Made by a program: the position numbers and the translations under genes. A DNA stretch of 64,000 nucleotides from a virus, in the IMG/VR virus record IMGVR_UViG_3300004463_000226, positions 170,336-234,335 of that record; one strand, written 5' to 3'. The notes under the pieces are model-generated. The model was not told the origin of the DNA. It worked only from the letters and a program-made list of their open reading frames with translations, and did no database searches. The first letter of the stretch is position 1. Each line of letters opens with the position of its first letter. Positions 1-12,393 of this stretch are shown piece after piece.

Positions 1-1401
1 ATAGAATAATGAAGGTAAGATGATAGATGTTCCGTTACCATTTTCATCAGGATTTACTTTAAACTCAGTAATGTGGTCAACAGGGATAAATTGGAACTTC
101 AACTGCTTGTTATACACATCATTATAGATTAATGAGTTCAGAATAAGATCCTTAAACTTAGCATTAGTTTCTAAGAACTTTCTATTGAAACTCTTAACAA
201 TTTTGTCTGTGATCTTAGATAAGAATGCATTTTCAGCATCTCTAATATCTGTAGACCCAGGGGTTAATTTGATATTCATACTGAAAGGAGATTTTCTAAC
301 CTTTAAATCAGTTTCATGAATATAGTAGTACCCGATAGTTTCATCCAGAACCTTAATAGGAATAATCTTTCTAGGGTCAATCAACTTAATATAACACTCT
401 TTAATAGAACTAAAATCATTATCCTTAGAGTTTAAGTCGACAGTTCCGTCAGCAGCCATTAATTTGGTTTTGGAATTAGATTGTTTGTCCGCAGCAGATA
501 CCTTTTTCTGGAACTTAGGAGTATCTAATAGTTCATTTAATTCAGCACCTTCTAATACTGGAATACCCATATCTTCATTATATATCTCAATATTTTCAAG
601 TACACCATTAAAAGAACTTGCTACTTCCTTATCAGATATCTTGATATCTACTGGAGTAGATGCTTTGAAATTTTTAGCAAAATCTACATCAACACTCTCC
701 ATAGTAGCTTTGTACTTCATTGCGTCTTTTGCTCTCTTTTCATTATGACGCTGGAATAACTTTGAGTATGGTACGGTATATACATAGTATCGACCATATT
801 CTAATGTTTTTGGAATGATATGGCTCTGGAGCTTAGTCAATAGATTAAACTGCTTCTCCATGCTTTCAACCATACCAATGTAACTTTGTTTATCAGCATC
901 TTCCTCTGAGGAATTTTTAAATCTAAGTGTACGAGATACGGCACTTGATAAATCATCTGAAGAAATGATAGCATCCCTTGTTGCCATGATAGCTTCATTC
1001 AATTCAAATAACTGTGCAGATACTACACTTAAATCCTCAAATAAGATATTCTGATTACGATACCGCTCTTGAAAGAATGAGAACATATTTCCATTATCGC
1101 TTTCAAATATATCCTCAATCGTTTTAATAGGACTTCCTGCATGTTGTTCATTTTCTTGCTGATTAAAAAGCTTTACGAGGAACGTAGAAACATCATCACC
1201 AGTGAACTTAGTTAAACCCTGTATTTCCTGAAAAATTACATCATCTATGTCTTTAGCCATCTGTTGCAATTCTCTATCTCGTTTATTCGAGTTAGAACCC
1301 GATGCACCGTCCAAGAACTTAGTAACTAAATCATTTAATTTTACAAGGGGCTTTTCTACTTTCTTCACCGATGCTTTTAAATCATTATCCTTTTTAGCCA
1401 C
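1..1401 (-). CDS. Portal-like virion protein, N-terminal part (runs off the window)
   Basis: An open frame of 467 codons begins at GTG 1401 after an AGGTGAAGGAAA leader and continues past base 1. The C-terminal part seen here has the pattern IKLIDPRKII, then ETIGYYYI, then FIPVDHITEFKVNPDENGNG. This resembles T4 gp20-type portal vertex proteins, where a 'DPRKI' strand and an 'IP.D.I..F' segment precede the stem. The first 200 residues are charged and helical. A late-type promoter (AACAATTGTATA) lies 43 bp upstream, as expected for a virion gene. Portal identity is an inference from pattern; another large structural protein is possible. Confidence 0.5.
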   Translation of the reverse strand, partial: MAKKDNDLKASVKKVEKPLVKLNDLVTKFLDGASGSNSNKRDRELQQMAKDIDDVIFQEIQGLTKFTGDDVSTFLVKLFNQQENEQHAGSPIKTIEDIFESDNGNMFSFFQERYRNQNILFEDLSVVSAQLFELNEAIMATRDAIISSDDLSSAVSRTLRFKNSSEEDADKQSYIGMVESMEKQFNLLTKLQSHIIPKTLEYGRYYVYTVPYSKLFQRHNEKRAKDAMKYKATMESVDVDFAKNFKASTPVDIKISDKEVASSFNGVLENIEIYNEDMGIPVLEGAELNELLDTPKFQKKVSAADKQSNSKTKLMAADGTVDLNSKDNDFSSIKECYIKLIDPRKIIPIKVLDETIGYYYIHETDLKVRKSPFSMNIKLTPGSTDIRDAENAFLSKITDKIVKSFNRKFLETNAKFKDLILNSLIYNDVYNKQLKFQFIPVDHITEFKVNPDENGNGTSIILPSLFY

Positions 1402-1432
1402 TTTCCTTCACCTGCCCTAGTATATATGTTTT

Positions 1433-1444
1433 TATACAATTGTT
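1433..1444 (-). promoter_or_regulatory. Late promoter motif AACA-N6-TA
   Basis: AACAATTGTATA on the minus strand, 43 bp before the GTG start of the portal-like gene. It fits the AACA-N6-TW late consensus recalled for AR9-like phages. Confidence 0.55.
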
Positions 1445-1470
1445 CAGGTAGCGGAAAACTACAAAAAAAA

Positions 1471-1491
1471 TAGAGAGCTATCAGCTCTCTA
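1471..1491 (-). terminator. Rho-independent terminator
   Basis: Perfect 9-bp stem TAGAGAGCT / AGCTCTCTA with a 3-nt loop, followed on the minus strand by a run of eight T. It ends the small-gene cluster that starts with the polymerase. Confidence 0.8.
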
Positions 1492-1500
1492 TTCACTTTG

Positions 1501-1833
1501 TCAAATGTATATAGTTTCTTCAACAACTAGATCATCGTCATCATCACGCAAGTATTGTGATGGATTTTCAAAGAACTTCTTCTTGAACTCTTTAACTTCA
1601 GCATAGTTCTTAAAGAATAATTCCTTAACAGGTTTAAAGAAATGATGATGATAGTTAAACCTATGACGACATATCTTAAATGTAACTGCTCCGTATACAT
1701 GAAATCCATGGTCTGGGTGATTATAAGCATTGAATCCACCATTTTTACCTGGAACCAATGGGTAGAATTCTCCTATTTTAAACTTACCCTCTATAGGTAA
1801 ATCAATACATTGACCAATCTCAACTTTAATCAT
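1501..1833 (-). CDS. Hypothetical protein, 110 aa
   Basis: Not recognised. ATG follows AAAGGAGGGATATAA. The protein has a histidine-rich stretch in the middle (HRFNYHHHFF, around residues 57-66) and an acidic run DDDDD near the C-terminus. It is the last gene of the minus-strand cluster before a strong terminator. No membrane segment or signal peptide is apparent. Confidence 0.75.
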   Translation of the reverse strand: MIKVEIGQCIDLPIEGKFKIGEFYPLVPGKNGGFNAYNHPDHGFHVYGAVTFKICRHRFNYHHHFFKPVKELFFKNYAEVKEFKKKFFENPSQYLRDDDDDLVVEETIYI

Positions 1834-1851
1834 TTATATCCCTCCTTTTAA

Positions 1852-2262
1852 TTACATGAATCTTCTATCGAATTCAAATCTTAGCTTTTGTCCTGTGTTA
1901 TTCTCAGGATGAACTTCTACATTCTCAAAGAATCTACTAGCGAACCGAGAATATTTCTTTCCATCTTTTAAACTTTCATATGATATGCGTGTCATCTGGG
2001 TCTCTTCATCAGTTTGTTTATCATAAACCAGATATTCATCACCTTCTTTATAGTGACGGTATATACCATATCTAACCTCAGGTTCTGGAAGTTCATATGT
2101 TTCACCAATGAACTCACTAAGTTTACGATGTAAGTTCAATACATCGTGTCTTTCATTTAGCATTAAAGCATAAACCATGTTACCACTAATAGGATCTCTA
2201 TCAAGAATATTGGCTCCACATTCAGAATCCTTACTATTTCTCATAATTTTAATCTCTTTCAT
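1852..2262 (-). CDS. DUF1653-like protein, 136 aa
   Basis: The central region reads GIYRHYKEGDEYLVYDK and ends in FASRFFENVEV. This is the layout of the DUF1653 family (K/G-x-Y-x-H-Y-K-G followed by a conserved aromatic/ENV end), a small domain of unknown function found in bacteria and phages. Three in-frame ATGs cluster at the start; 2262 has the best spacing to AAGGAG. The first bases overlap the stop of the upstream gene, indicating translational coupling. Family assignment is from motif memory. Confidence 0.7.
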   Translation of the reverse strand: MKEIKIMRNSKDSECGANILDRDPISGNMVYALMLNERHDVLNLHRKLSEFIGETYELPEPEVRYGIYRHYKEGDEYLVYDKQTDEETQMTRISYESLKDGKKYSRFASRFFENVEVHPENNTGQKLRFEFDRRFM

Positions 2263-2267
2263 TGTCA

Positions 2268-2552
2268 TCATTCTCCTTTAAAATAATTATCAATTAATGT
2301 TTTAACCTCTGGGAATAACTCACAAAACTCATCAACAGTAAGTCTATCTTTTAATAATGAAATACTTGCATTCAACTCTACTTCTACTGAAACACCTTCT
2401 ACACCAGATATCTTTAACTCATCTTTCTTAAATTTCTCACTCTGAAAATGTTTAGCCTCTTCCATAGAAGTGACAACATGTCTTTCAGTACTTTCCCAAT
2501 CATCACCATACGTTGTCACGTATATAACATGAACTTCTTTCATTTTAGTCAT
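2268..2552 (-). CDS. Hypothetical protein, 94 aa
   Basis: Not recognised. An earlier in-frame TTG exists, but ATG 2552 has AAGGG at good spacing. The protein is acidic with a predicted beta strand (VIYVTTYGDDW) followed by a helix. It sits in a tightly packed cluster of short genes downstream of the DNA polymerase, overlapping its neighbours by a few bases. Confidence 0.7.
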   Translation of the reverse strand: MTKMKEVHVIYVTTYGDDWESTERHVVTSMEEAKHFQSEKFKKDELKISGVEGVSVEVELNASISLLKDRLTVDEFCELFPEVKTLIDNYFKGE

Positions 2553-2557
2553 AATTA

Positions 2558-2908
2558 TCAATCCCTTAATGTTATTGGATAAAACTTATCTGGAACTACT
2601 TGTGGTTTAGGTAAAGGAGACAGATAAACTCTATAAGCTGTCTCTTCACCAACTGAAAAAACATCCCTTCCCATAGAACCTAAACATTGAAAGTGTTTAT
2701 CAAAAGCAGTATCCCCAGATATATAAAATACTGGTTTATTGTATATAACTCTTCTTTCATGAAGAATATACTCAGCTGTACAGTTTTCTCTAGGAATTTC
2801 AACATTAAATTTCTCTCTAATATTAGAAATAGCCCTCAAGACAACTTCAGCTTCTCTAATCTTTATATGAGGATCTTGTCTGTTAAGATATTCTTGATAA
2901 CCGTACAT
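2558..2908 (-). CDS. Hypothetical protein, 116 aa
   Basis: Not recognised. The start at 2908 is preceded by AAGGAGGATAAT; a longer frame to 2944 lacks a ribosome site and would overlap the upstream gene. No known motif is seen. It lies in the same cluster as the DNA polymerase and was probably co-transcribed with it. Confidence 0.7.
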   Translation of the reverse strand: MYGYQEYLNRQDPHIKIREAEVVLRAISNIREKFNVEIPRENCTAEYILHERRVIYNKPVFYISGDTAFDKHFQCLGSMGRDVFSVGEETAYRVYLSPLPKPQVVPDKFYPITLRD

Positions 2909-2918
2909 ATTATCCTCC

Positions 2919-3569
2919 TTAGAATTTAATACATGTATATACATGAAAATTTGTTACGTCATCCTTAGTAATAGATATCATGGTTTCAAATAGATTAGGG
3001 TCATCTATATCCAAGATTGTTACACTCATAGGTAAACCAACTTTAATATGTGGAAATAATGCCTTTGTTAATCTAACACGTTTATCGCCTTCACCAAATG
3101 TAAGTATTTCGTTGTTGATCAACTTCTGGATATCTTCGTCAGTCAATAATTTTTCCGACTTCTTAGTGATACGGTCTACGATAACTCTATATGTATCTTT
3201 AAACGCATCAGTCATTTTAACATATCTACCAATAGGAAAATCTATCATATCTCCTGAGATAAATATACCATTATCATTAAATTTTAGATACTTGATAATC
3301 TTCTTGTTATCTCTAATGGTAACAAATACATCTTGAGAATTTAGCATCAGAGCATAACCTTCTGGTATACTAAATAATTTGAGAAGGTCATCTATCTGAT
3401 TAGTATATGAGAAATGTAATCCCATCTCCATAGCTAAACCATTATCATCTGTGAATATAACACCATTACGAACAACAAAGTAGCGAAGAAAAGACTTCTT
3501 CACTACTTGATTGATTGTATTTAGAACTTTAAGTTGTTTACTAACAACAGGTATTAATTGTTGCTCCAT
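2919..3569 (-). CDS. Unknown protein, 216 aa, translationally coupled to DNA polymerase
   Basis: Its ATG shares a base with the stop of the polymerase gene (TAATG), and its ribosome site GGGGAGG lies inside the polymerase C-terminal codons, so the two are coupled. It carries no polymerase motif B (KxxxNxxYG) or motif C (DTD), so it is not simply the missing polymerase half. The sequence alternates strands and turns (FVVRNGVIFTDDNG, VFVTIRDNKK), which could fit a clamp-like or other accessory fold. A polymerase accessory role is inferred only from coupling. Confidence 0.75.
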   Translation of the reverse strand: MEQQLIPVVSKQLKVLNTINQVVKKSFLRYFVVRNGVIFTDDNGLAMEMGLHFSYTNQIDDLLKLFSIPEGYALMLNSQDVFVTIRDNKKIIKYLKFNDNGIFISGDMIDFPIGRYVKMTDAFKDTYRVIVDRITKKSEKLLTDEDIQKLINNEILTFGEGDKRVRLTKALFPHIKVGLPMSVTILDIDDPNLFETMISITKDDVTNFHVYTCIKF

Positions 3570-5395
3570 TACATTACCTCCCCAAGGTCAATAATAAGTG
3601 GTTCGGCAAACCATTTATTAACATCTTCTTTACTTAATACTACACGCTTACGTTTGTTCATCTTGAACTTATTACGAAGCATATCGTTAAGTTCAACAAC
3701 ATTTGGCATTCCAAACCACTTAGTTGCCATGTTAGCTACATTGCCTGTAAGTAGGTTATCAACGAAGTCTTTACCAGCGTCTTCAACTTTACCTTTCTTA
3801 TCAGCCACAGCATTTTTCATAGCTTCTTGGATATTTCCACCAATGATTAGTTTCCCTACCATACAGTTTGGAGCAATGTTGAATGCAATAATGATATGAG
3901 GATACATTGCTGAGAAGTCCATGTCAACGACATTATCAAAGATATACATACTTGGATTACCGAATACAGGTATACCCATGAAGTCGTTTAACTTTGGATC
4001 TGCTACTAATGCACCATCAAACTTTTCATCTTCATCATCTTCCTCATTATCCGCTTGATAATCTAGTCCATAGTCTAGATTGATGTTGTTACCAATGATT
4101 AAACCTTGCTTATAATACTCAATATAAGCTCGGTTCTTTAAGAAGACAGTCTGCTTAAATATTTTGTGATACACTGTTGCATTTGAATAAGCACGTTGAT
4201 ATACGTTATCAATATCAGATGTCTTTCTTTCAATTCCTAACTGTAGAAGAACGTCTTTTATATTGTACATGACGAACTTCTTATAGTCTTTATAAGGCAA
4301 TGTCTGGATATTAGCATCTTCACTATAGTCCAGCTTTTCATCACCAATCTCTTTCTTTGCTACTGCATTTAAGGCATAGGAACGTAGTTCTCCGCCACCT
4401 TTACGTAAACCCGCATAGAGTAACATTTGGTCTAGATATGCTGTATAAGAAGAAATCATAAAGTAATCTGATTTATTCTCAACTTTAAAGTTCCTAGAGT
4501 CTTTTTTATAAAATAAGGACTTAACTTTAAAATCCTTATGGCACATGATGTTAACAGGATCTAATCCTAAAGCTTTAATCCGTGCAATAATGTACGGAAT
4601 ATCGAACGCCATGTTCCAGATCATTATAAAGTCACGTTTCAGAGTATTGATCAATTTGAACATGTCTCTTATTAAATCGGGTTCATCATCATACATATAG
4701 AATCTATATTCGAGTGTACCATATGTTTCATCAAAGGCTTCATGTAATTCTTCAATGAACTCATCTATAGTATCTTCAAATTCTTGAATCTGTGGATTAT
4801 TAGGATTACGTAATAAGAACGTATAAGATACCATATCCTCTTCATCCACAATTGTAACTGCATTAATAGGACATTCACCATCTTTAGGGAAACCTTCAAT
4901 ACCTATAGAATCGACCTCTATATCTAGGTACTGCTTAGTTATAGGTTTCTCCTTATCATTATGATTGTGTAAGAACCATTGTATTCGATACCAGTTATCG
5001 ATATCATAATCTGAGCCGAAGACATTCTTATACTTATGAATGTTACTTATAGCTCTAAAGTTTTTACTCTGTTTCATCTTATTGATGAATTGCACATAGT
5101 TAGGTCCTGCTTGATCTGCTATATAGTACGGTAAATTTCTAAATGTGTACTTATGCATCTCAGCATTTTCAATTTCGATAAATGTGCGGTTATACTTATT
5201 ATTGATTGCATTTTCTTTTGCAAAATAGAATTCCATCTCAGGTGATTCGATTGTTTCTAAGTGCTTTTCCCCTGTCCTGAGATCTTTATATATAATATCT
5301 AGGAAATCTTTATAACCTGTGCCCTTGTTAGGTCTATGATAAATTGTATTCACAAGCATCAGATTTTCCTTATCTAAGTGTGGTAAGATTCTCAC
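3569..5395 (-). CDS. Family B DNA polymerase, exonuclease domain and start of palm (split or truncated)
   Basis: 608 residues with the 3'-5' proofreading motifs in order: Exo I LDIEVD (about 157-162), Exo II WNMAFDIPYI (about 260-269) and Exo III YNIKD (377-381). The linker DGALV (about 460-464) follows, then polymerase motif A DFSAMYPHII (493-502). The frame ends about 105 residues later without motif B or motif C, so the fingers, catalytic DTD and thumb are missing. They must come from another gene if this is an active polymerase. Start ATG has AAAGGGAGTG. An early-type promoter lies 73 bp upstream. Confidence 0.88.
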   Translation of the reverse strand: MRILPHLDKENLMLVNTIYHRPNKGTGYKDFLDIIYKDLRTGEKHLETIESPEMEFYFAKENAINNKYNRTFIEIENAEMHKYTFRNLPYYIADQAGPNYVQFINKMKQSKNFRAISNIHKYKNVFGSDYDIDNWYRIQWFLHNHNDKEKPITKQYLDIEVDSIGIEGFPKDGECPINAVTIVDEEDMVSYTFLLRNPNNPQIQEFEDTIDEFIEELHEAFDETYGTLEYRFYMYDDEPDLIRDMFKLINTLKRDFIMIWNMAFDIPYIIARIKALGLDPVNIMCHKDFKVKSLFYKKDSRNFKVENKSDYFMISSYTAYLDQMLLYAGLRKGGGELRSYALNAVAKKEIGDEKLDYSEDANIQTLPYKDYKKFVMYNIKDVLLQLGIERKTSDIDNVYQRAYSNATVYHKIFKQTVFLKNRAYIEYYKQGLIIGNNINLDYGLDYQADNEEDDEDEKFDGALVADPKLNDFMGIPVFGNPSMYIFDNVVDMDFSAMYPHIIIAFNIAPNCMVGKLIIGGNIQEAMKNAVADKKGKVEDAGKDFVDNLLTGNVANMATKWFGMPNVVELNDMLRNKFKMNKRKRVVLSKEDVNKWFAEPLIIDLGEVM

Positions 5396-5467
5396 ATTTT
5401 CACTCCCTTTCTTCTTATATTTGTGTTGATTGATTTATAAAAAACCAATTTGATCGATTCCATACTA

Positions 5468-5477
5468 ATAATATATA
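5468..5477 (-). promoter_or_regulatory. Early promoter motif TATATATTAT
   Basis: Exact TATATATTAT on the minus strand, 73 bp before the DNA polymerase start, in the divergent gap opposite a late-type gene. Confidence 0.6.
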
Positions 5478-5509
5478 TTTTTAATTAAGGTATAATTTAG
5501 TATATAAAA

Positions 5510-5521
5510 AACACATACTTA
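5510..5521 (+). promoter_or_regulatory. Late promoter motif AACA-N6-TA
   Basis: AACACATACTTA, 41 bp before ATG 5551. Spacing matches the other late-type sites in the window. Confidence 0.55.
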
Positions 5522-5550
5522 AGATAAGTTAAAGAGAGGAGTTGGGTAGA

Positions 5551-6687
5551 ATGACTATGTATGTAAACATTGATCTTCCTATCGAACGAGGGAGTTTGAT
5601 TAGTGAGATCAAATCTCTTCCTAAGATTACTGCTCCACCTAAAAAGAAGAAAGAAATATTCGATGAAGGTGAACCGTTGTTATTAACAGCGGTTGGTAAG
5701 AAAGGGAAGAAAGATAAAGGTAAGAAGAAGAAAAAAAATCAAATGGGTGAAGGTCTCAGCTTCATGGGTCTTAATGATGCTGATGTTACTACTGAGGATA
5801 CGTATGAAGAATATGATGAATCAGATGACAAACTCATTGATATTGAAGCTCTTCTGAATCGTGATGACGAAGAGGATGAGGTCGGAGGAATCATTGATGA
5901 ACAGAAGCGTAGTTACGAGAAACGTAAAAAGGATGAGAATCCTTTTAAGAAAGAATTCGCTGAAGAACTAACTCTCTTATATGATTTACTTGATGATTTA
6001 AATAAGTTTAATAAGGAACTTGACAAGAAGTATAAGACTATGGAAAGTAGTAAAGTTCGTGGAGTTAGTAAGTATACTAATGACATGATTATCAATATAC
6101 TTAATGCTAAGACTAGCAAACTTCAAGTTATCAAGGAGATTAACAGCCTTAAGAAAGTTATTGCTGACCTTAAGATTAAGATGGATGGTAAGAAAGGTGG
6201 GGCTGAAGGTGGTGTTGAAAGCACTGATGCATTGGCTACTAAGTATTTCCAAAACATCCTTAAGTTCGGTCGTAACAATTTCGTTAAGGAGTTTGGTAAT
6301 GATGACAATGATGGTGATGCTATCACTGATTTAGTTGCTCGAATTGAGCAGAATAAAATGGGATATAGTCCAGATGAAGATGAAAGTTTTCATGATCTAA
6401 TCCAAGAAAGATTAGAGAGCGAAGATAACCCGTTCCGTTCAGAAGCAGGATCTAAATATATCCAGTATGAAAACCTCGGTGTAAAGATTCAAATAAAAAA
6501 ATGTATTGATAATGGTGAATGGGAGTTTGTTGCTGTTGACCGTGACAATATGGAAGTACATGGATATCCTTTACCTCGCAAACGTGATGTTGGTAAAGTA
6601 AAATTCAATGATGGCTATGCTACTGATGAAAGGGGACGTAGTTATAAAGTAATTGAGTTTTATCTACCAGATGATTACGAAGATTAA
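5551..6687 (+). CDS. Late protein of unknown function, 378 aa, lysine-rich N-terminal segment
   Basis: Not recognised. ATG 5551 is used rather than an upstream TTG because GAGGAG sits 10 bases before it. Near the N-terminus are two basic patches (PPKKKKE and GKKDKGKKKKKN), then a strongly acidic segment (residues about 85-120), a helical probable coiled coil (about 130-215) and a mixed C-terminal domain. It is an isolated plus-strand gene between minus-strand units with its own late-type promoter and terminator, so a virion or assembly role is inferred. Confidence 0.8.
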   Translation: MTMYVNIDLPIERGSLISEIKSLPKITAPPKKKKEIFDEGEPLLLTAVGKKGKKDKGKKKKKNQMGEGLSFMGLNDADVTTEDTYEEYDESDDKLIDIEALLNRDDEEDEVGGIIDEQKRSYEKRKKDENPFKKEFAEELTLLYDLLDDLNKFNKELDKKYKTMESSKVRGVSKYTNDMIINILNAKTSKLQVIKEINSLKKVIADLKIKMDGKKGGAEGGVESTDALATKYFQNILKFGRNNFVKEFGNDDNDGDAITDLVARIEQNKMGYSPDEDESFHDLIQERLESEDNPFRSEAGSKYIQYENLGVKIQIKKCIDNGEWEFVAVDRDNMEVHGYPLPRKRDVGKVKFNDGYATDERGRSYKVIEFYLPDDYED

Positions 6688-6696
6688 TATAAAAAA

Positions 6697-6726
6697 ATAG
6701 ATACCTGCGATTTAGCAGGTATCTAT
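6697..6726. terminator. Bidirectional terminator between convergent genes
   Basis: Perfect 12-bp stem ATAGATACCTGC / GCAGGTATCTAT with a 6-nt loop. A-rich upstream and T-rich downstream flanks let it serve both strands. Confidence 0.85.
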
Positions 6727-6729
6727 TTC

Positions 6730-7143
6730 TTATTTCGTTGCAAACTCATTAGATATCTTTTGAAAAGGTTCTGTAAATTCTTCACGCATCTTTTTTCTAG
6801 ATGCTTCTTTTATAGTAAGGATATTTTCCTTACTATATTTTTCAATCTTCTCATAATACATTATATTTAACTCTACAATTTCATTACTTAATTCATTAAG
6901 TAATTGAAGTATCTGCGCTGATGTTTCTGCTTCTTCTAATAGCTGTATAATACTGAGTATCGAACTTGTAAAAGTTGAGTCACCGATCGGGTCGTCACTA
7001 CCAATAAATTCCCTTAGACGTGCACTCATTTCTAAGAATCTAGGGAATCTTTCTTTAATTTCATTGGGTGAATATTTCAGAATAATAATACCCTTTTCAG
7101 CTAAATGTGGTTCTAATACCTCTATCAATTCATCCATATTCAT
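6730..7143 (-). CDS. Hypothetical helical protein, 137 aa
   Basis: Not recognised. ATG follows AAGGGAGCTGTTAAT. Mostly helical. Its layout (an I-L-K/T-x-x-x-x-x-I-R/K-x-x-F-P-x-F-x-x-x segment near residue 25, then helices) parallels the next gene upstream (7167-7613), suggesting the two are distant paralogues. It is co-directional with that gene and ends at the shared bidirectional terminator. Confidence 0.75.
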   Translation of the reverse strand: MNMDELIEVLEPHLAEKGIIILKYSPNEIKERFPRFLEMSARLREFIGSDDPIGDSTFTSSILSIIQLLEEAETSAQILQLLNELSNEIVELNIMYYEKIEKYSKENILTIKEASRKKMREEFTEPFQKISNEFATK

Positions 7144-7166
7144 ATTAACAGCTCCCTTAAATATAT

Positions 7167-7613
7167 TTATCTTTTAAAACTTTTAAATACGCTTTCAGCA
7201 ATGATATCAATAGCAGCATGACATTTTAAAAACTCACCATGTATTTCAACCTTTGTTTTATCCGTAGCCTCAGACGATAATCCTTCTGCTTTAGACATGT
7301 ATTCACCAATAGCATCAATATATGTTGATTGTAGGCATTTATATATTTTGCTAAGCTCACGATGATTTCTTACGTTCTGACAAGCTCGCATTGTATTTAC
7401 TACCACCAAAGGAATATTAAAGTTATAATCATCAGGAACAAGTTCTTCCCTAGGATCAAGTATATTCTGTATAGCCATAAATCTATCATTCAATGCAGCA
7501 AACATTGGAAACATCTGTCTGATATGAATATTTGTTAAAGGTATAATAGCCTTTCCATATTTCACTCTCATTTGCTCAAACAGTAATTCCATCGCATAAG
7601 TCTCTTTATTCAT
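7167..7613 (-). CDS. Hypothetical helical protein, 148 aa
   Basis: Not recognised. ATG follows AGGGAGAGG. The segment IPLTNIHIRQMFPMFAALND aligns by eye with ILKYSPNEIKERFPRFLEMS of the downstream neighbour, which suggests an old tandem duplication. An early-type promoter lies 47 bp upstream, so the pair is probably an early two-gene unit. Confidence 0.75.
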   Translation of the reverse strand: MNKETYAMELLFEQMRVKYGKAIIPLTNIHIRQMFPMFAALNDRFMAIQNILDPREELVPDDYNFNIPLVVVNTMRACQNVRNHRELSKIYKCLQSTYIDAIGEYMSKAEGLSSEATDKTKVEIHGEFLKCHAAIDIIAESVFKSFKR

Positions 7614-7659
7614 TTTTTTACCTCTCCCTTATTATTGATTATTTATATTACTCGATATT

Positions 7660-7669
7660 ATAATATATA
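7660..7669 (-). promoter_or_regulatory. Early promoter motif TATATATTAT with AATCAATAATAA leader
   Basis: TATATATTAT on the minus strand, 47 bp before ATG 7613. The leader contains AATCAATAATAA at 7629-7640, an element shared with other early leaders. Confidence 0.6.
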
Positions 7670-7698
7670 ATTTTTGATATTAAAAATACGAAAAAAAT

Positions 7699-7720
7699 AA
7701 CTAGGACCGAAGTCCTAGTT
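7699..7720 (-). terminator. Rho-independent terminator
   Basis: 9-bp stem AACTAGGAC / GTCCTAGTT with a TTCG tetraloop on the minus strand, followed by seven T. It ends the dCMP deaminase unit. Confidence 0.88.
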
Positions 7721-7722
7721 TA

Positions 7723-8271
7723 TTAATAATCTAACGTACGTAATGAAGAACTCTTTGGTCTCTTAGGAGGTTTATTATTGATAATTTTATGCGCCCTAAG
7801 AGAGTCTGCATTAGAAACACTACCCCATTCAATTCTTATATGTCTTCCGAAGAATTGTCTTAAATGCATTCCAATATGGAAGTCATTTTCATATCTGTGC
7901 GGGTAGAAATTATCATATACAACTTCTTTAACTCCAGCCTGATTCAACTCTTTCATACAATCAGGACAAGGATAGTGAGTAACATATGCCATAGCCCCTT
8001 CTACTGATATACCGAGTTTTGCACACATAAGCAGTGCATTCTTTTCAGCATGGATAGTTCTTTTACATCCAATACGTCCATTTTCTTCAACTTCTAAATG
8101 TCCTATCTCATCACAGTGTGCAGCTCCCGATATACTTCCATTATAACCTTCAGCGATAATTCTGTTATTCTTTACAAATACACATCCGACATGTAGCCTG
8201 TCACAGGTCGATCTTTCTGATAGCAGATGAGCATTAGCCATATAATACTCATCAAATGTAGGTCTAGTCAT
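7723..8271 (-). CDS. Deoxycytidylate (dCMP) deaminase
   Basis: 182 residues with the zinc-dependent cytidine/deoxycytidylate deaminase signature: HAEKNA (His74, catalytic Glu76) and PCPDC (Cys102, Cys105). It would convert dCMP to dUMP in the host cytoplasm. An N-terminal strand with GCVFVKNNRIIAEGYNG is typical of phage and ComEB-type dCMP deaminases. Start ATG after AGGAGGAGAATAA. In PBS1/PBS2-type phages dUMP feeds dUTP for uracil-containing DNA; whether that applies here is not shown by sequence. Confidence 0.92.
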   Translation of the reverse strand: MTRPTFDEYYMANAHLLSERSTCDRLHVGCVFVKNNRIIAEGYNGSISGAAHCDEIGHLEVEENGRIGCKRTIHAEKNALLMCAKLGISVEGAMAYVTHYPCPDCMKELNQAGVKEVVYDNFYPHRYENDFHIGMHLRQFFGRHIRIEWGSVSNADSLRAHKIINNKPPKRPKSSSLRTLDY

Positions 8272-8282
8272 TTATTCTCCTC

Positions 8283-10943
8283 CTATGCAGCAAATATAAT
8301 ATTTGTATTTCTGTAGTTATCGATATTCTTATCAGATGTCATAATGATATCTACAGGATAGTTATCAAACATGTTATTGTGTGTAATCAAGAATACTTGC
8401 TCAGCTCCAATAGCTTCAAGCTGTTCTTCTAAAATATTCAAGAATTGCTCACGTTTCTTAGTATCTAATGTAGCATCAATTTCATCTAGTAGCATGATAT
8501 TATAATCCTTAATGGATTGCTCTATTAATGCAAATGACAGTGCCATAGATAAGAAGCTTTCTTCTCCTTGGGAACAGAATGAAACGTCTTCAATAATAAT
8601 ACCGTTTTTAGTATATGGTATTCTAAACTCCTTCTCATTGATGATAAACTCACCGACTTCTAACTCTCCACTATATACAGTGTCTAATAGTTGATTTACC
8701 ATCATTCTTGAATTACGTAAATATAGCTGCATGAATAGTAATGGAATACCTTTATTAGAAGAAAGTGCTTCTTTAATGATATTAATATCTTCGAACTTAT
8801 CTTCTAAGTCAATACGTTCTTCATTTAGAGAATTAAATTCTCTCAACCTAAACTTAATATTATTAATATCAGTTTCCATACGTTCAATATCTCTGTCAAC
8901 TTCAGTTAGTCTATTTTGTTTTTCACGACGTATAGTTACTAACTCGGATACATGGTCTTCAGTCCGTTTCATCTTGTCTAATTCAGTATATATGACTTGG
9001 GACTCATCTAGTTGATTTTGGATTTCTTCACTATAATCCTTAAATGATTTTAATCGTTCTAATAGATCTTCCAATCCCTCGTTACGATTAGTTAGTAACT
9101 TATTGTCTTCTCTAAGCTTATCTAGGTCAGTTGATACTTTATAGATTTCAACATCTAAGGATTCCAATTCTTTCTGAATACCTGCAAAAGAGTTACTATT
9201 TTTCTCAATGAATATCTTCTCATGTAGAACTTCTTTAATCTTAGAATCTAACTCTTTATATTCTTCATAATCTTCTAGAAGAGAAATATAGTTAGTTATA
9301 TACTCTTCATCAAAGAATGGTGTAAACGATTTAATGCTAGTTAGAATATGCTTAACATCAAAGAAGTTCTCAGGCATTTTCTCAGCAAGACTCTTATAAG
9401 ACTTAATGAGTAATAAGATATACTCTACCTTCTTAGCAATATTAGGGAATGATAAGAAGAAGTCTCTTTTTGTCTCTAAACTCTTTAATTCTGACTGAAT
9501 GTCAACCTTATCATCAATAGTTCTTCCAGTAGCATCTTCATAATACTCCTGAAAAGGACAATTGCAGTTACATGTATCTGGTTTAAATAAGATATATAGT
9601 TTATTGGGGTCAATATTAGAAGTTTGTGCCTGGATAGATAGTGAACGGTTTAATCTAGATATCTTATCCTCAATCTTAGATAATTCCTTTCTAGCAACCC
9701 ATTCTACACTTTGACCATTTATGAAATGTCCCAACACATTATCTACAGCATTGGTATCAAACTCATAGATATCACTAACAAACTTTTCTATTTCCTGTAA
9801 TACTCCTAAAGCTGTTAACATTTCATCTCTTGTACACTTAGGAGTAAATGATTTGAAGCGTTTCTCAAATTTCTCTCTATCCCTATGTAATTGTAGATAG
9901 AGGTCATTCAATCTACTATATTCTAAATCCGATGCAATATACTTTAAACTATCTTCTTTCTCTTTCTTTTGCTCATGTAAACTATTTAACTGATTAAAAT
10001 AAAACTCCATCATGTTTTTATTCACAATAATTTGGTTTGAGTTAGAAGATATTTGTTGCTCTGTTTCTTTAATAGACTTATCAACATTTCCCATGATGAT
10101 AACATCGAACTTCTTAAGTTTAGACTTCTTACCCTCTATCTCGCTAGTAATTCTCTTATACTCAGAGTGCTTTAATCTGATTTCAGCAATAAAACAATCT
10201 AAACCATCATGAACTAATATATTGATAGATCCATCAATTCTTCCGATTTCACTATTAATAGTGTCACGTATCTCTTTGTTTAACTTAAGCTGTGCTTCTA
10301 GTTCAGATAGATGTTTAAGCTCTTCTTTTTCATCGTATATTCGTAACTTGTCAATCTTGTCAGTTACGGACTTCATTAATGATTTAAGTAAACGACTATC
10401 TTCATTTATCTTCTTATAAAACTTAGAATAAATATCAATATCACTTAATAATTTAGAAGCAAAAGTTTTACGTTCAGTTGCTTTAGATCTGATGAAGGTA
10501 CTTACATTAGAACCTAAGCGTAGAAGCTTAAGATATTCAGGAGCAACACCTAATTCCATATTAACAACTTCTAGGAATGAGTTGACATTTCCATTAGGAT
10601 TCATCTCAGCACCATTCTTAGATATATAACTCTTCATACCTTTATTTGCTTTAAATAGATAGAAGTGCTTTATTATATATACATCTTCACCGTTCTGTAT
10701 ATGAAGTTCTTTATATCCATCTTGTTCTTCTATTATTAAGCCAGATGTATTTCGTACATCCATATTACCTGGAGCAGCAAAAGGATGTAATAAACTTAAT
10801 ATGGCTGTTTTACCTGTACCATTATCACCTACAAATAGAACAACTCTATTCTTACATTTACGGAAATCAATTTCTATTTCTCTACGTTTCATTCCAGTGA
10901 ATATCGTAGCAAAATTCTTTGCTTTTAAGTATAGAAACTTCAT
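8283..10943 (-). CDS. SbcC/Rad50-like (T4 gp46-like) recombination ATPase
   Basis: 886 residues. Walker A GDNGTGKTA (39-47) is at the N-terminus. Long coiled-coil arms flank a cysteine cluster DTCNCNCPF near mid-protein that would form the zinc hook. At the C-terminus are the ABC-type signature CSQGEESFLSMAL and Walker B IMLLDEID. This is the SMC-like subunit that works with an SbcD/Mre11 nuclease in DNA end processing; that partner is encoded about 48 kb away at 58506-59714, on the same strand. ATG follows AAGGGAGATAAGAG. Confidence 0.93.
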   Translation of the reverse strand: MKFLYLKAKNFATIFTGMKRREIEIDFRKCKNRVVLFVGDNGTGKTAILSLLHPFAAPGNMDVRNTSGLIIEEQDGYKELHIQNGEDVYIIKHFYLFKANKGMKSYISKNGAEMNPNGNVNSFLEVVNMELGVAPEYLKLLRLGSNVSTFIRSKATERKTFASKLLSDIDIYSKFYKKINEDSRLLKSLMKSVTDKIDKLRIYDEKEELKHLSELEAQLKLNKEIRDTINSEIGRIDGSINILVHDGLDCFIAEIRLKHSEYKRITSEIEGKKSKLKKFDVIIMGNVDKSIKETEQQISSNSNQIIVNKNMMEFYFNQLNSLHEQKKEKEDSLKYIASDLEYSRLNDLYLQLHRDREKFEKRFKSFTPKCTRDEMLTALGVLQEIEKFVSDIYEFDTNAVDNVLGHFINGQSVEWVARKELSKIEDKISRLNRSLSIQAQTSNIDPNKLYILFKPDTCNCNCPFQEYYEDATGRTIDDKVDIQSELKSLETKRDFFLSFPNIAKKVEYILLLIKSYKSLAEKMPENFFDVKHILTSIKSFTPFFDEEYITNYISLLEDYEEYKELDSKIKEVLHEKIFIEKNSNSFAGIQKELESLDVEIYKVSTDLDKLREDNKLLTNRNEGLEDLLERLKSFKDYSEEIQNQLDESQVIYTELDKMKRTEDHVSELVTIRREKQNRLTEVDRDIERMETDINNIKFRLREFNSLNEERIDLEDKFEDINIIKEALSSNKGIPLLFMQLYLRNSRMMVNQLLDTVYSGELEVGEFIINEKEFRIPYTKNGIIIEDVSFCSQGEESFLSMALSFALIEQSIKDYNIMLLDEIDATLDTKKREQFLNILEEQLEAIGAEQVFLITHNNMFDNYPVDIIMTSDKNIDNYRNTNIIFAA

Positions 10944-10970
10944 CTCTTATCTCCCTTATAAAAAAATTTA

Positions 10971-11001
10971 AATACCCTTACAAGAATGTTGTAAGGGTAT
11001 T
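10971..11001 (-). terminator. Rho-independent terminator
   Basis: Perfect 13-bp stem AATACCCTTACAA / TTGTAAGGGTATT with a 5-nt loop, then a T7 run on the minus strand. It separates the SbcC-like gene from the gene upstream. Confidence 0.88.
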
Positions 11002-11011
11002 CACAAAGTAA

Positions 11012-11680
11012 TCAGCCACGAGAACCGTACTTGTCGTTCATGTCTTTCATGATTTGCTCACGCATATTATTTTGTCCAGCTTCATAAGATCTTTCCATAA
11101 GCTTAAGAGCGAGATCAAATGTCATGGTAAATTCTTTTATCTTCAGCTTTTGTAAATCGCTATATGTGTAACCGAGTTTAGATATGAGGAAGTACATCAT
11201 TTCATTTATAGTTTGCTCTTTAGATTTTTGATTTTGTTTTTCAAGCTCGGCAATATTTTCAACCGCTTCTCCAACAACTTTATTCATATCTAACTCAGCA
11301 ACTTTCTTCAACTCTTCCCATTTGATATTATCAGGGAAATCATGTTTTATTTTTTCGTCTACAATATCCTTGACAGTCTTGTATGTAGGTTTAAATACAA
11401 TTTCACTTGGAATCTTAATACCTAACTTATGTGGATAAAATGCCTTGTTAAGTGTTACTGCAACAAGGTGCTGTAAACCTTCTTTAGAACTATATGGATT
11501 AAACTGAATGCTGGATAAAGTCCCAATAAAATCAATATATAACATTTGCTTATCTGTTTCAGATACACACTCAATCTTGTCCCACAATTCTTTAATTTCA
11601 ATATATACCATATTTGGAATCTCTTGATCTTTCACTAAGTTAATATCGCTATCTCTAAACTCTCTGAATGTTTTATACAT
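11012..11680 (-). CDS. Hypothetical protein, 222 aa
   Basis: Not recognised. ATG after AAAGGGAGAGAATAAT. The second half is helical and charged with a probable short coiled coil (AELEKQNQKSKEQT, about residues 142-155). It is flanked by terminators on both sides, so it may be its own transcript or the end of a longer unit from 13166. Confidence 0.8.
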   Translation of the reverse strand: MYKTFREFRDSDINLVKDQEIPNMVYIEIKELWDKIECVSETDKQMLYIDFIGTLSSIQFNPYSSKEGLQHLVAVTLNKAFYPHKLGIKIPSEIVFKPTYKTVKDIVDEKIKHDFPDNIKWEELKKVAELDMNKVVGEAVENIAELEKQNQKSKEQTINEMMYFLISKLGYTYSDLQKLKIKEFTMTFDLALKLMERSYEAGQNNMREQIMKDMNDKYGSRG

Positions 11681-11703
11681 ATTATTCTCTCCCTTTTATT
11701 AAA

Positions 11704-11722
11704 GGAGGAGTTTAACTCCTCC
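11704..11722 (-). terminator. Possible terminator or leader hairpin
   Basis: GGAGGAGT / ACTCCTCC with a 3-nt loop, then TTTAATAAAAG on the minus strand. The stem includes GGAGG but lies between two genes; the weak T run makes strength uncertain. Confidence 0.5.
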
Positions 11723-11730
11723 ATATTTTT

Positions 11731-12393
11731 TTAAAAATCGTCGCTTGTAATGTCAATACGTTCTGGTAATGGACTTATCTTATCAGTACCAGCATCTTCA
11801 ATGACCATCTTCCACTTTAGTCCTAGAATCTCGCACCAGCTATCAAAGTTAGTTACAGTCATCTTAGTTTCTTTATTCAATCCACTCTTCATATTATTGA
11901 GAGCGTATTGATTAGGAAACTTACTTTTATAATTCTTAAGATTAACCTGTTTGTCTAAGATAGCTTTCTTTACAGCATACTTAAGGAAATCATCTTCTTC
12001 CTTAAAGGTAGGCTTGAATATCTCTTGGTTATTATTAATAACCTCGATATCTTCAGGATCTAAGAAATCCTCCTTCTGTTCAAGGATATCATTGATTATC
12101 TTCTGAGTATCTAACTCAATGATGTTATGAATGCTATAATCAACTTTATCTGTAACAGTATTTGGTGGGACGAATTCATGCTCCCCGTGTATATTTAGAT
12201 ATATGCCTGGAAGCATTTCACTCGGTCTAAATTTCTCTTTCTTTCCTCGATAGATATATACATAATCATTTAATATATACCCAAATCCCTTTCTTAATTT
12301 TTTACTTGCATGGTATCTCTCAACCTCATGAAAGCCTTCTTCTGTTGTTATGAATAGTCTACCAATAAATACTCTAAAGGTATTTAATTCCAT
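11731..12393 (-). CDS. Hypothetical protein, 220 aa
   Basis: Not recognised. The N-terminal half looks like a beta-rich domain (FRVFIGRLFITTEEGFHEV, GYILNDYVYIYRGKKEK); the C-terminal half is charged and helical. ATG 12393 follows GAGAGGTGAATTTAAA. It lies 14 bases after the stop of the 252-aa gene, so the two are probably co-expressed. Confidence 0.8.
   Translation of the reverse strand: MELNTFRVFIGRLFITTEEGFHEVERYHASKKLRKGFGYILNDYVYIYRGKKEKFRPSEMLPGIYLNIHGEHEFVPPNTVTDKVDYSIHNIIELDTQKIINDILEQKEDFLDPEDIEVINNNQEIFKPTFKEEDDFLKYAVKKAILDKQVNLKNYKSKFPNQYALNNMKSGLNKETKMTVTNFDSWCEILGLKWKMVIEDAGTDKISPLPERIDITSDDF

What the first reader, a model, noticed from the sequence alone, without database searches (positions are those of the whole stretch)
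2919..5395. Family B DNA polymerase ends after motif A
Exonuclease motifs I-III and motif A are intact, but the reading frame stops about 105 residues later with no motif B or C, and no downstream gene in the cluster supplies them. There is also no group I intron core here. The polymerase must be assembled from a second gene outside this window, or this product is an exonuclease-only remnant. The coupled 216-aa gene may be an accessory subunit.
Basis: partly seen in the sequence, partly recalled or inferred. Interest (0 to 1): 0.66.

Follow-up and report, generated by a model that had tools for sequence, protein, structure and literature searches.

The report
Two-gene phage DNA polymerase plus clamp
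The gene is the front half of a jumbo-phage DNA polymerase whose back half lies 32 kb away, a two-gene layout already known in this phage group, while the small gene coupled to its end looks like a DNA sliding clamp that these phages had been thought to lack.

Summary
Window 3569-5395 (-) encodes a 608-aa family B polymerase N-part (PolN) with exonuclease motifs I-III and motif A, ending 117 residues after motif A begins; no intron core is nearby. The missing part is in the same 234-kb virus record, 32.5 kb away: a 645-aa protein (PolC; G000:C1:139424-141361 -) with fingers, motif B (KINANSYYG), motif C (DTDS) and thumb. No other DNA polymerase (family A, family C or a second B) was found in the record.

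The split is not new. AR9/PBS1, BpSp, SA1, MarsHill, LPJP1 and phiR1-37 have the same two genes, phiKZ-like phages have a divergent version, and papers name a "split subunit DNA polymerase" in phiKZ and a "partial catalytic domain" polymerase in AR9.

The new part is the coupled 216-aa gene. It belongs to a family conserved between PolN and the portal gene. AlphaFold models of two members (this one and AR9 gp128), compared with the PDB, return only sliding clamps among the 50 matches listed for each. It is probably the processivity clamp. A published survey says these phages lack a classical clamp. I found no recognisable clamp loader. Ring formation, polymerase binding and activity are inferred.

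The parts
3569..5395 (-). polN: N-terminal subunit of a split family B DNA polymerase (N-terminal domain, 3'-5' exonuclease, first part of palm with motif A), 608 aa
   Evidence: phrog_3011 DNA polymerase E 9e-61; PF00136 positions 42-107; tblastn to AR9, PBS1, BpSp, SA1, phiR1-37
4916..4924 (-). Exo I motif D158-I-E160
4601..4615 (-). Exo II motif N261-M-A-F-D265
4253..4267 (-). Exo III motif Y377-N-I-K-D381
3899..3925 (-). polymerase motif A D491-M-D-F-S-A-M-Y-P499
2919..3569 (-). 216-aa predicted sliding clamp (processivity factor), start codon overlapping the polN stop (TAATG)
   Evidence: AlphaFold2 pLDDT 92.5; Foldseek PDB, all 50 matches listed are DnaN or 9-1-1 clamps; AR9 homologue model, all 50 listed are PCNA/DnaN/9-1-1/UL44; family conserved next to polN

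Best explanation
This is the N-terminal subunit of a two-gene replicative family B DNA polymerase of an AR9/phiR1-37-type jumbo phage. PolN supplies the N-terminal domain, the proofreading exonuclease and the first palm strand with the motif A aspartate. PolC, encoded 32.5 kb away, supplies both finger helices, motif B, the rest of the palm with the motif C aspartates, and the thumb. The break lies at the palm/fingers boundary, so the two-metal active site can only form when the two proteins assemble in trans. The gene translationally coupled to polN encodes a PCNA/DnaN-like clamp that probably tethers the assembled polymerase to DNA, perhaps through the conserved extreme C-terminal peptide of PolC ([ST]-N-[IVM]-[IL]-x-hydrophobic-COOH). 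Shown by sequence: both halves, their motifs, conservation of the split, absence of another polymerase. Shown by structure prediction only: the clamp fold. Inferred: assembly in trans, ring formation, the PolC-clamp contact, and how the clamp is loaded.
For: PolC in the same record: PF00136 positions 122-201 (polN covers 42-107, so the two are complementary) plus PF20286 divergent family B polymerase E 1e-40; motif B at 134-142 and DTDS at 331-334, catalytic residues invariant in the aligned relatives. PolC residues 95-177 align with the fingers/motif B region of Pol delta. No family A or family C polymerase and no second family B polymerase in the record. The same two genes occur in PBS1, AR9, BpSp, SA1, MarsHill, phiR1-37 and LPJP1. 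Every uninterrupted polN frame in the lineage (about 50 loci, many redundant) ends 69-137 aa after motif A, whereas two outgroup polymerases (L093, L094) continue for 485-488 aa in one chain. PolN and PolC identities to this phage track each other: 65/68, 53/50, 50/52, 52/52, 49/48, 34/32, 32/33, 29/30%. Clamp; position polN-clamp-portal conserved; family link from window-side to AR9-side members in a first-round profile search, E 1.3e-6. PolC C-terminal peptide conserved with an invariant Asn in 15 aligned relatives.
Against: No biochemical or co-purification data. The record may be incomplete. Foldseek E-values for the window clamp are moderate (best 6e-4, TM about 0.5) and no sequence profile recognises it. 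No RFC/DnaX-type clamp loader was found; the only strong AAA+ candidate (451 aa, C1:125169-126524) resembles clamp-loader profiles only across the generic ATPase core. The PolC C-terminal 12 residues as a whole are not exceptionally conserved (rank 249 of 634 windows).
Confidence: 0.9

Rival explanations
1. PolN is an exonuclease-only remnant or stand-alone proofreading/repair nuclease, and PolC works alone.
For: PolN carries a complete exonuclease domain. A survey of group 1 jumbo phages describes the exonuclease as a possible stand-alone protein (PMC7824862).
Against: Motif A, a polymerase and not an exonuclease element, is kept in PolN in every relative examined, including the phiKZ-type PolN of BONAISHI (SDIDITSGYP) and Noxifer (VADLDIVSTYP). 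A motif A pattern scan found none in any PolC frame of this lineage. PolN and PolC divergences match.
Confidence: 0.05
2. The gene is broken by a sequencing or assembly error, or by an unrecognised intron.
For: Relatives do carry introns in polN: a group I intron next to motif A in L007, three group I introns in L063, group II introns in LPJP1.
Against: No intron core within window 1-12000. The stop is at the position used by all relatives and is followed directly by the conserved clamp gene. The missing half exists elsewhere as an intact gene.
Confidence: 0.01
3. The two halves are joined by trans-splicing of RNA or by a split intein.
For: A split polymerase B with an intein is reported in jumbo phage MIJ3 (PMC6892783).
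Against: Pfam finds no intein domain in PolN or PolC. The tails at the junction are short, variable and followed by ordinary stops and starts. No intron fragment in window 1-12000 around polN or in the polC locus L001.
Confidence: 0.03
4. The 216-aa protein has the clamp fold but is not a polymerase processivity clamp (for example a checkpoint-like or structural adaptor, or a non-ring factor).
For: No recognised clamp loader. 9-1-1 proteins and herpesvirus UL44 are also among the matches. The next gene downstream in relatives is the portal.
Against: Tight coupling to polN and co-conservation with it.
Confidence: 0.2

Closest known systems
AR9/PBS1 two-gene DNA polymerase (AR9 locus tags gp131 'DnaQ-like exonuclease and partial catalytic domain' and gp151; called gp132 and gp152 in PMC5312081)
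   Same: Same two proteins, same split point between motifs A and B, same SbcC-upstream neighbourhood
   Different: About 32-33% identity; AR9 has an RNase H-annotated gene and a small gene between polN and the clamp homologue
phiR1-37 (g170; g167 + g164)
   Same: Same split; polN and polC near each other on opposite strands
   Different: polC is further interrupted by a group I intron, and a homing-endonuclease gene follows polN
phiKZ-type 'split subunit DNA polymerase' (Cornelissen et al. 2012, cited in PMC5105663; Pfam PF20286)
   Same: Motif A in the exonuclease-bearing protein, motifs B and C in the other (BONAISHI and Noxifer)
   Different: Very divergent; no homologue of the 216-aa clamp seen by sequence
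T4-like split gp43A/gp43B (for example Acinetobacter phage 133)
   Same: A family B polymerase in two genes
   Different: From general knowledge: a recent lineage-specific split of a T4-type gene, not tested here
PCNA / DnaN / 9-1-1 / UL44 clamps
   Same: Predicted fold of the 216-aa protein and of AR9 gp128
   Different: About 10% identity; oligomeric state and loader unknown

Membership tests
AR9/phiR1-37-type split family B DNA polymerase | exonuclease motifs plus motif A in one protein ending before the fingers | tested here: met
AR9/phiR1-37-type split family B DNA polymerase | separate gene with motifs B and C and thumb in the same genome | tested here: met
AR9/phiR1-37-type split family B DNA polymerase | orthology of both halves to AR9/PBS1 proteins | tested here: met
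   tblastn E 2e-66 and 9e-98
AR9/phiR1-37-type split family B DNA polymerase | the two products form one active enzyme | not testable with these tools
   needs co-expression and assay
Sliding clamp (PCNA/DnaN superfamily) | clamp fold, two or more repeated domains | tested here: met
   predicted models of two members; Foldseek lists only clamps among the 50 matches shown for each
Sliding clamp (PCNA/DnaN superfamily) | significant sequence profile match | tested here: not met
   Pfam: none for this protein; one of 24 members hits PF00712 at E 0.019. Profile search of PDB sequences gives no clamp
Sliding clamp (PCNA/DnaN superfamily) | closed ring around DNA | not testable with these tools
   only the monomer was modelled
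Sliding clamp (PCNA/DnaN superfamily) | accompanied by a clamp loader | tested here: inconclusive
   no DnaX/RFC match above cut-off; one generic AAA+ candidate
Intein- or intron-split gene | intein domain or group I/II intron core at the junction | tested here: not met

The most novel reading that the evidence does not exclude
AR9/phiR1-37-type jumbo phages carry their own highly diverged sliding clamp, coupled to the exonuclease/motif A subunit of a polymerase that is assembled in trans, with no recognisable clamp loader. This would correct the published view that these phages lack a classical clamp. The clamp either loads itself, as herpesvirus UL44 does, or uses a non-RFC AAA+ protein.
Probability: 0.6. 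Interest if true: 0.6.

Novelty: new member of a known kind. Interest (0 to 1): 0.42.

Why it matters
The split polymerase settles the puzzle in an ordinary way: jumbo phages of this group use a replicase whose catalytic aspartates come from two polypeptides. The added value is a predicted processivity clamp in a phage group said to have none, present also in a well-studied relative (AR9/PBS1) where it can be tested directly. If confirmed it fills a gap in the replication machinery of these phages and raises the question of how a clamp works without a recognised loader.

Tried and rejected
Sequencing error or intron in this copy: rejected. Exonuclease-only remnant: rejected (motif A conserved, PolC present). 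Second complete polymerase: none found. Intein: none. Clamp relatives by peptide-pattern scan from a three-row alignment: no loci; relatives were instead taken from the gene next to polN. Profile comparison of the window-side with the AR9-side clamp families using shallow alignments was uninformative; deeper profiles linked them. Profile comparison of the clamp family with a phiKZ-type RNase H (Noxifer) found nothing. Two attempts to align the larger PolN set failed on coordinates. The AR9 genome paper (Lavysh 2016), Korn 2021 and Kazlauskas 2011 are not held, so an earlier mention of a clamp there cannot be excluded.

Full report
What was checked. The window is G000:C1:170336-234335, the right-hand end of a 234,335-base virus record. 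The ORF at 3569-5395 (-) is 608 aa. It has exonuclease motifs D158-I-E160, N261-MAF-D265 and Y377-NIK-D381, and motif A D491-M-D493-FSAMYP. All catalytic positions are invariant in an alignment with AR9, SA1, MarsHill and phiR1-37. It ends 117 residues after motif A begins. Pfam DNA_pol_B is matched only over profile positions 42-107. No group I or other intron core lies in window 1-12000.

Where the rest of the polymerase is. A search of the same record with DNA_pol_B found a second place: a 645-aa gene at C1:139424-141361 (-), 32.5 kb from polN and outside the window. It matches DNA_pol_B over positions 97-177 of the protein (profile 122-201) and PF20286, divergent family B polymerase, over 276-637 at E 1e-40. 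It has motif B KINANSYYG, motif C VDTDSN and an invariant KKxY stretch. The two genes therefore cover complementary parts of one polymerase. PolC residues 95-177 align with the finger helices and motif B of DNA polymerase delta, so the cut falls at the palm/fingers boundary. Placing it exactly there rests on my knowledge of family B structure. No family A or family C polymerase was found.

It is a conserved arrangement, not damage. tblastn of PolN and PolC finds both in PBS1, AR9, Goe21, BpSp, SA1, MarsHill, S6, Madawaska, PALS_2, phiR1-37 and LPJP1, always at separate places. A scan of viral contigs gave 55 PolN loci and 11 PolC loci. In every uninterrupted PolN frame of the lineage (about 50 loci, many redundant) the protein ends 69-137 residues after motif A. 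Two outgroup loci, L093 and L094, continue for 485-488 residues in one chain. In many relatives polN and polC are close together on opposite strands; in L062 and L065 they lie on the same strand 3 kb apart, and in this phage on the same strand 32 kb apart. PolN and PolC identities to this phage are nearly equal in each relative, as expected if they evolve as one enzyme. In phiKZ-type phages the exonuclease protein also carries a motif A-like sequence (BONAISHI SDIDITSGYP; Noxifer VADLDIVSTYP) and the other protein carries motifs B and C (Noxifer KINNNSYSGA and SDTDS).

Known or new. [quoted passage not shown] The AR9 transcription paper repeats it and names a separate catalytic subunit (PMC5312081). 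A 2016 paper says the split subunit DNA polymerase of phiKZ was recognised in the OBP genome paper of 2012 (PMC5105663). The split in this window is therefore a new member of a known kind.

The coupled 216-aa gene. It starts on the last base of the PolN stop codon. No Pfam family matches it; weak PHROG hits are to families of unknown function. The gene directly after polN in relatives belongs to the same family and usually lies just before the portal-sized gene. A first-round profile made from eight window-side members finds AR9 gp128 at E 1.3e-6, and a profile from AR9 and BpSp finds L045 at 5e-5 (E-values for a small local set). AlphaFold2 with 24 sequences gave pLDDT 92.5. Against the PDB, all 50 matches listed are sliding clamps, DnaN and Rad9-Hus1-Rad1/9-1-1, the best at E 6e-4. 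AR9 gp128, modelled separately (pLDDT 85; from largely the same set of sequences), gave 76 matches below E 1e-3; all 50 listed are PCNA, DnaN, 9-1-1 or UL44. The viral library returns likely family members, including a 247-aa protein the size of phiR1-37 g175, and an annotated beta clamp protein. I conclude that it is a diverged two-domain clamp.

How it probably works. PolN and PolC assemble so that motif A from one and motif C from the other bind the two catalytic metals; PolN proofreads; the clamp tethers the pair. The 20 distinct PolC C-termini collected end in a short hydrophobic peptide, nearly always with an Asn-hydrophobic core such as S-N-I-L-x-I, at the place where T4, archaeal and eukaryotic family B polymerases carry their clamp-binding peptide (general knowledge). 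The Asn is invariant in 15 aligned relatives but the last 12 residues as a whole are not unusually conserved, so this is a suggestion only. No other predicted protein in the record ends in the same motif. No clamp loader was recognised: DnaX-type and RFC-type families give nothing above cut-off, and the single strong AAA+ protein (451 aa) resembles clamp loaders only in its ATPase core.

Against the literature. A comparative survey states that group 1 jumbo phages lack a classical sliding clamp (PMC7824862). Paper searches gave no report of a clamp in AR9, PBS1 or phiR1-37, but three relevant papers are not held. The clamp assignment is therefore probably, not certainly, new.

Scores. The split polymerase alone would deserve about 0.2. 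The clamp raises the interest to 0.42.

Noticed in passing
L007:11503-11912 (+): Group I intron within or directly next to motif A of polN in a relative (DFSSMYPNV, then the intron).
   Followed up: partly
L063:6769-8015 (+): Three separate group I introns in a single polN gene, and two more further downstream on the same contig.
   Followed up: partly
L014:6061-8536 and L005:2437-2836 (-): Group II intron in LPJP1 polN; group I intron splitting phiR1-37 polC (g167/g164). Polymerase genes of this lineage are intron hot spots.
   Followed up: partly
L113:571-2049 (-): RP12 and Noxifer 'ribonuclease H' proteins (533 and 492 aa) are structural matches to the window clamp (prob 0.99 and 0.69). The roughly 300-aa region after the RNase HI domain may be a fused clamp in phiKZ-type phages; a single-sequence profile comparison did not confirm it.
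   Followed up: partly
L004:7676-8269 (+): AR9 gp130, annotated 'Rnase H', reads like a DEDDh 3'-5' exonuclease (FFDTEFTG ... HNALHDAK).
   Followed up: no
L108:5169-6524 (-): 451-aa AAA+ ATPase, the only possible candidate for a clamp loader in the record; function unknown.
   Followed up: partly
window 7723-8271 (-): Probable deoxycytidylate deaminase next to SbcC; relatives AR9, PBS1 and phiR1-37 have uracil DNA, so this phage may too.
   Followed up: no
window 5542-6687 (+): 381-aa lysine- and acid-rich protein divergent from polN, weak match to phrog_27823 (unknown function).
   Followed up: no
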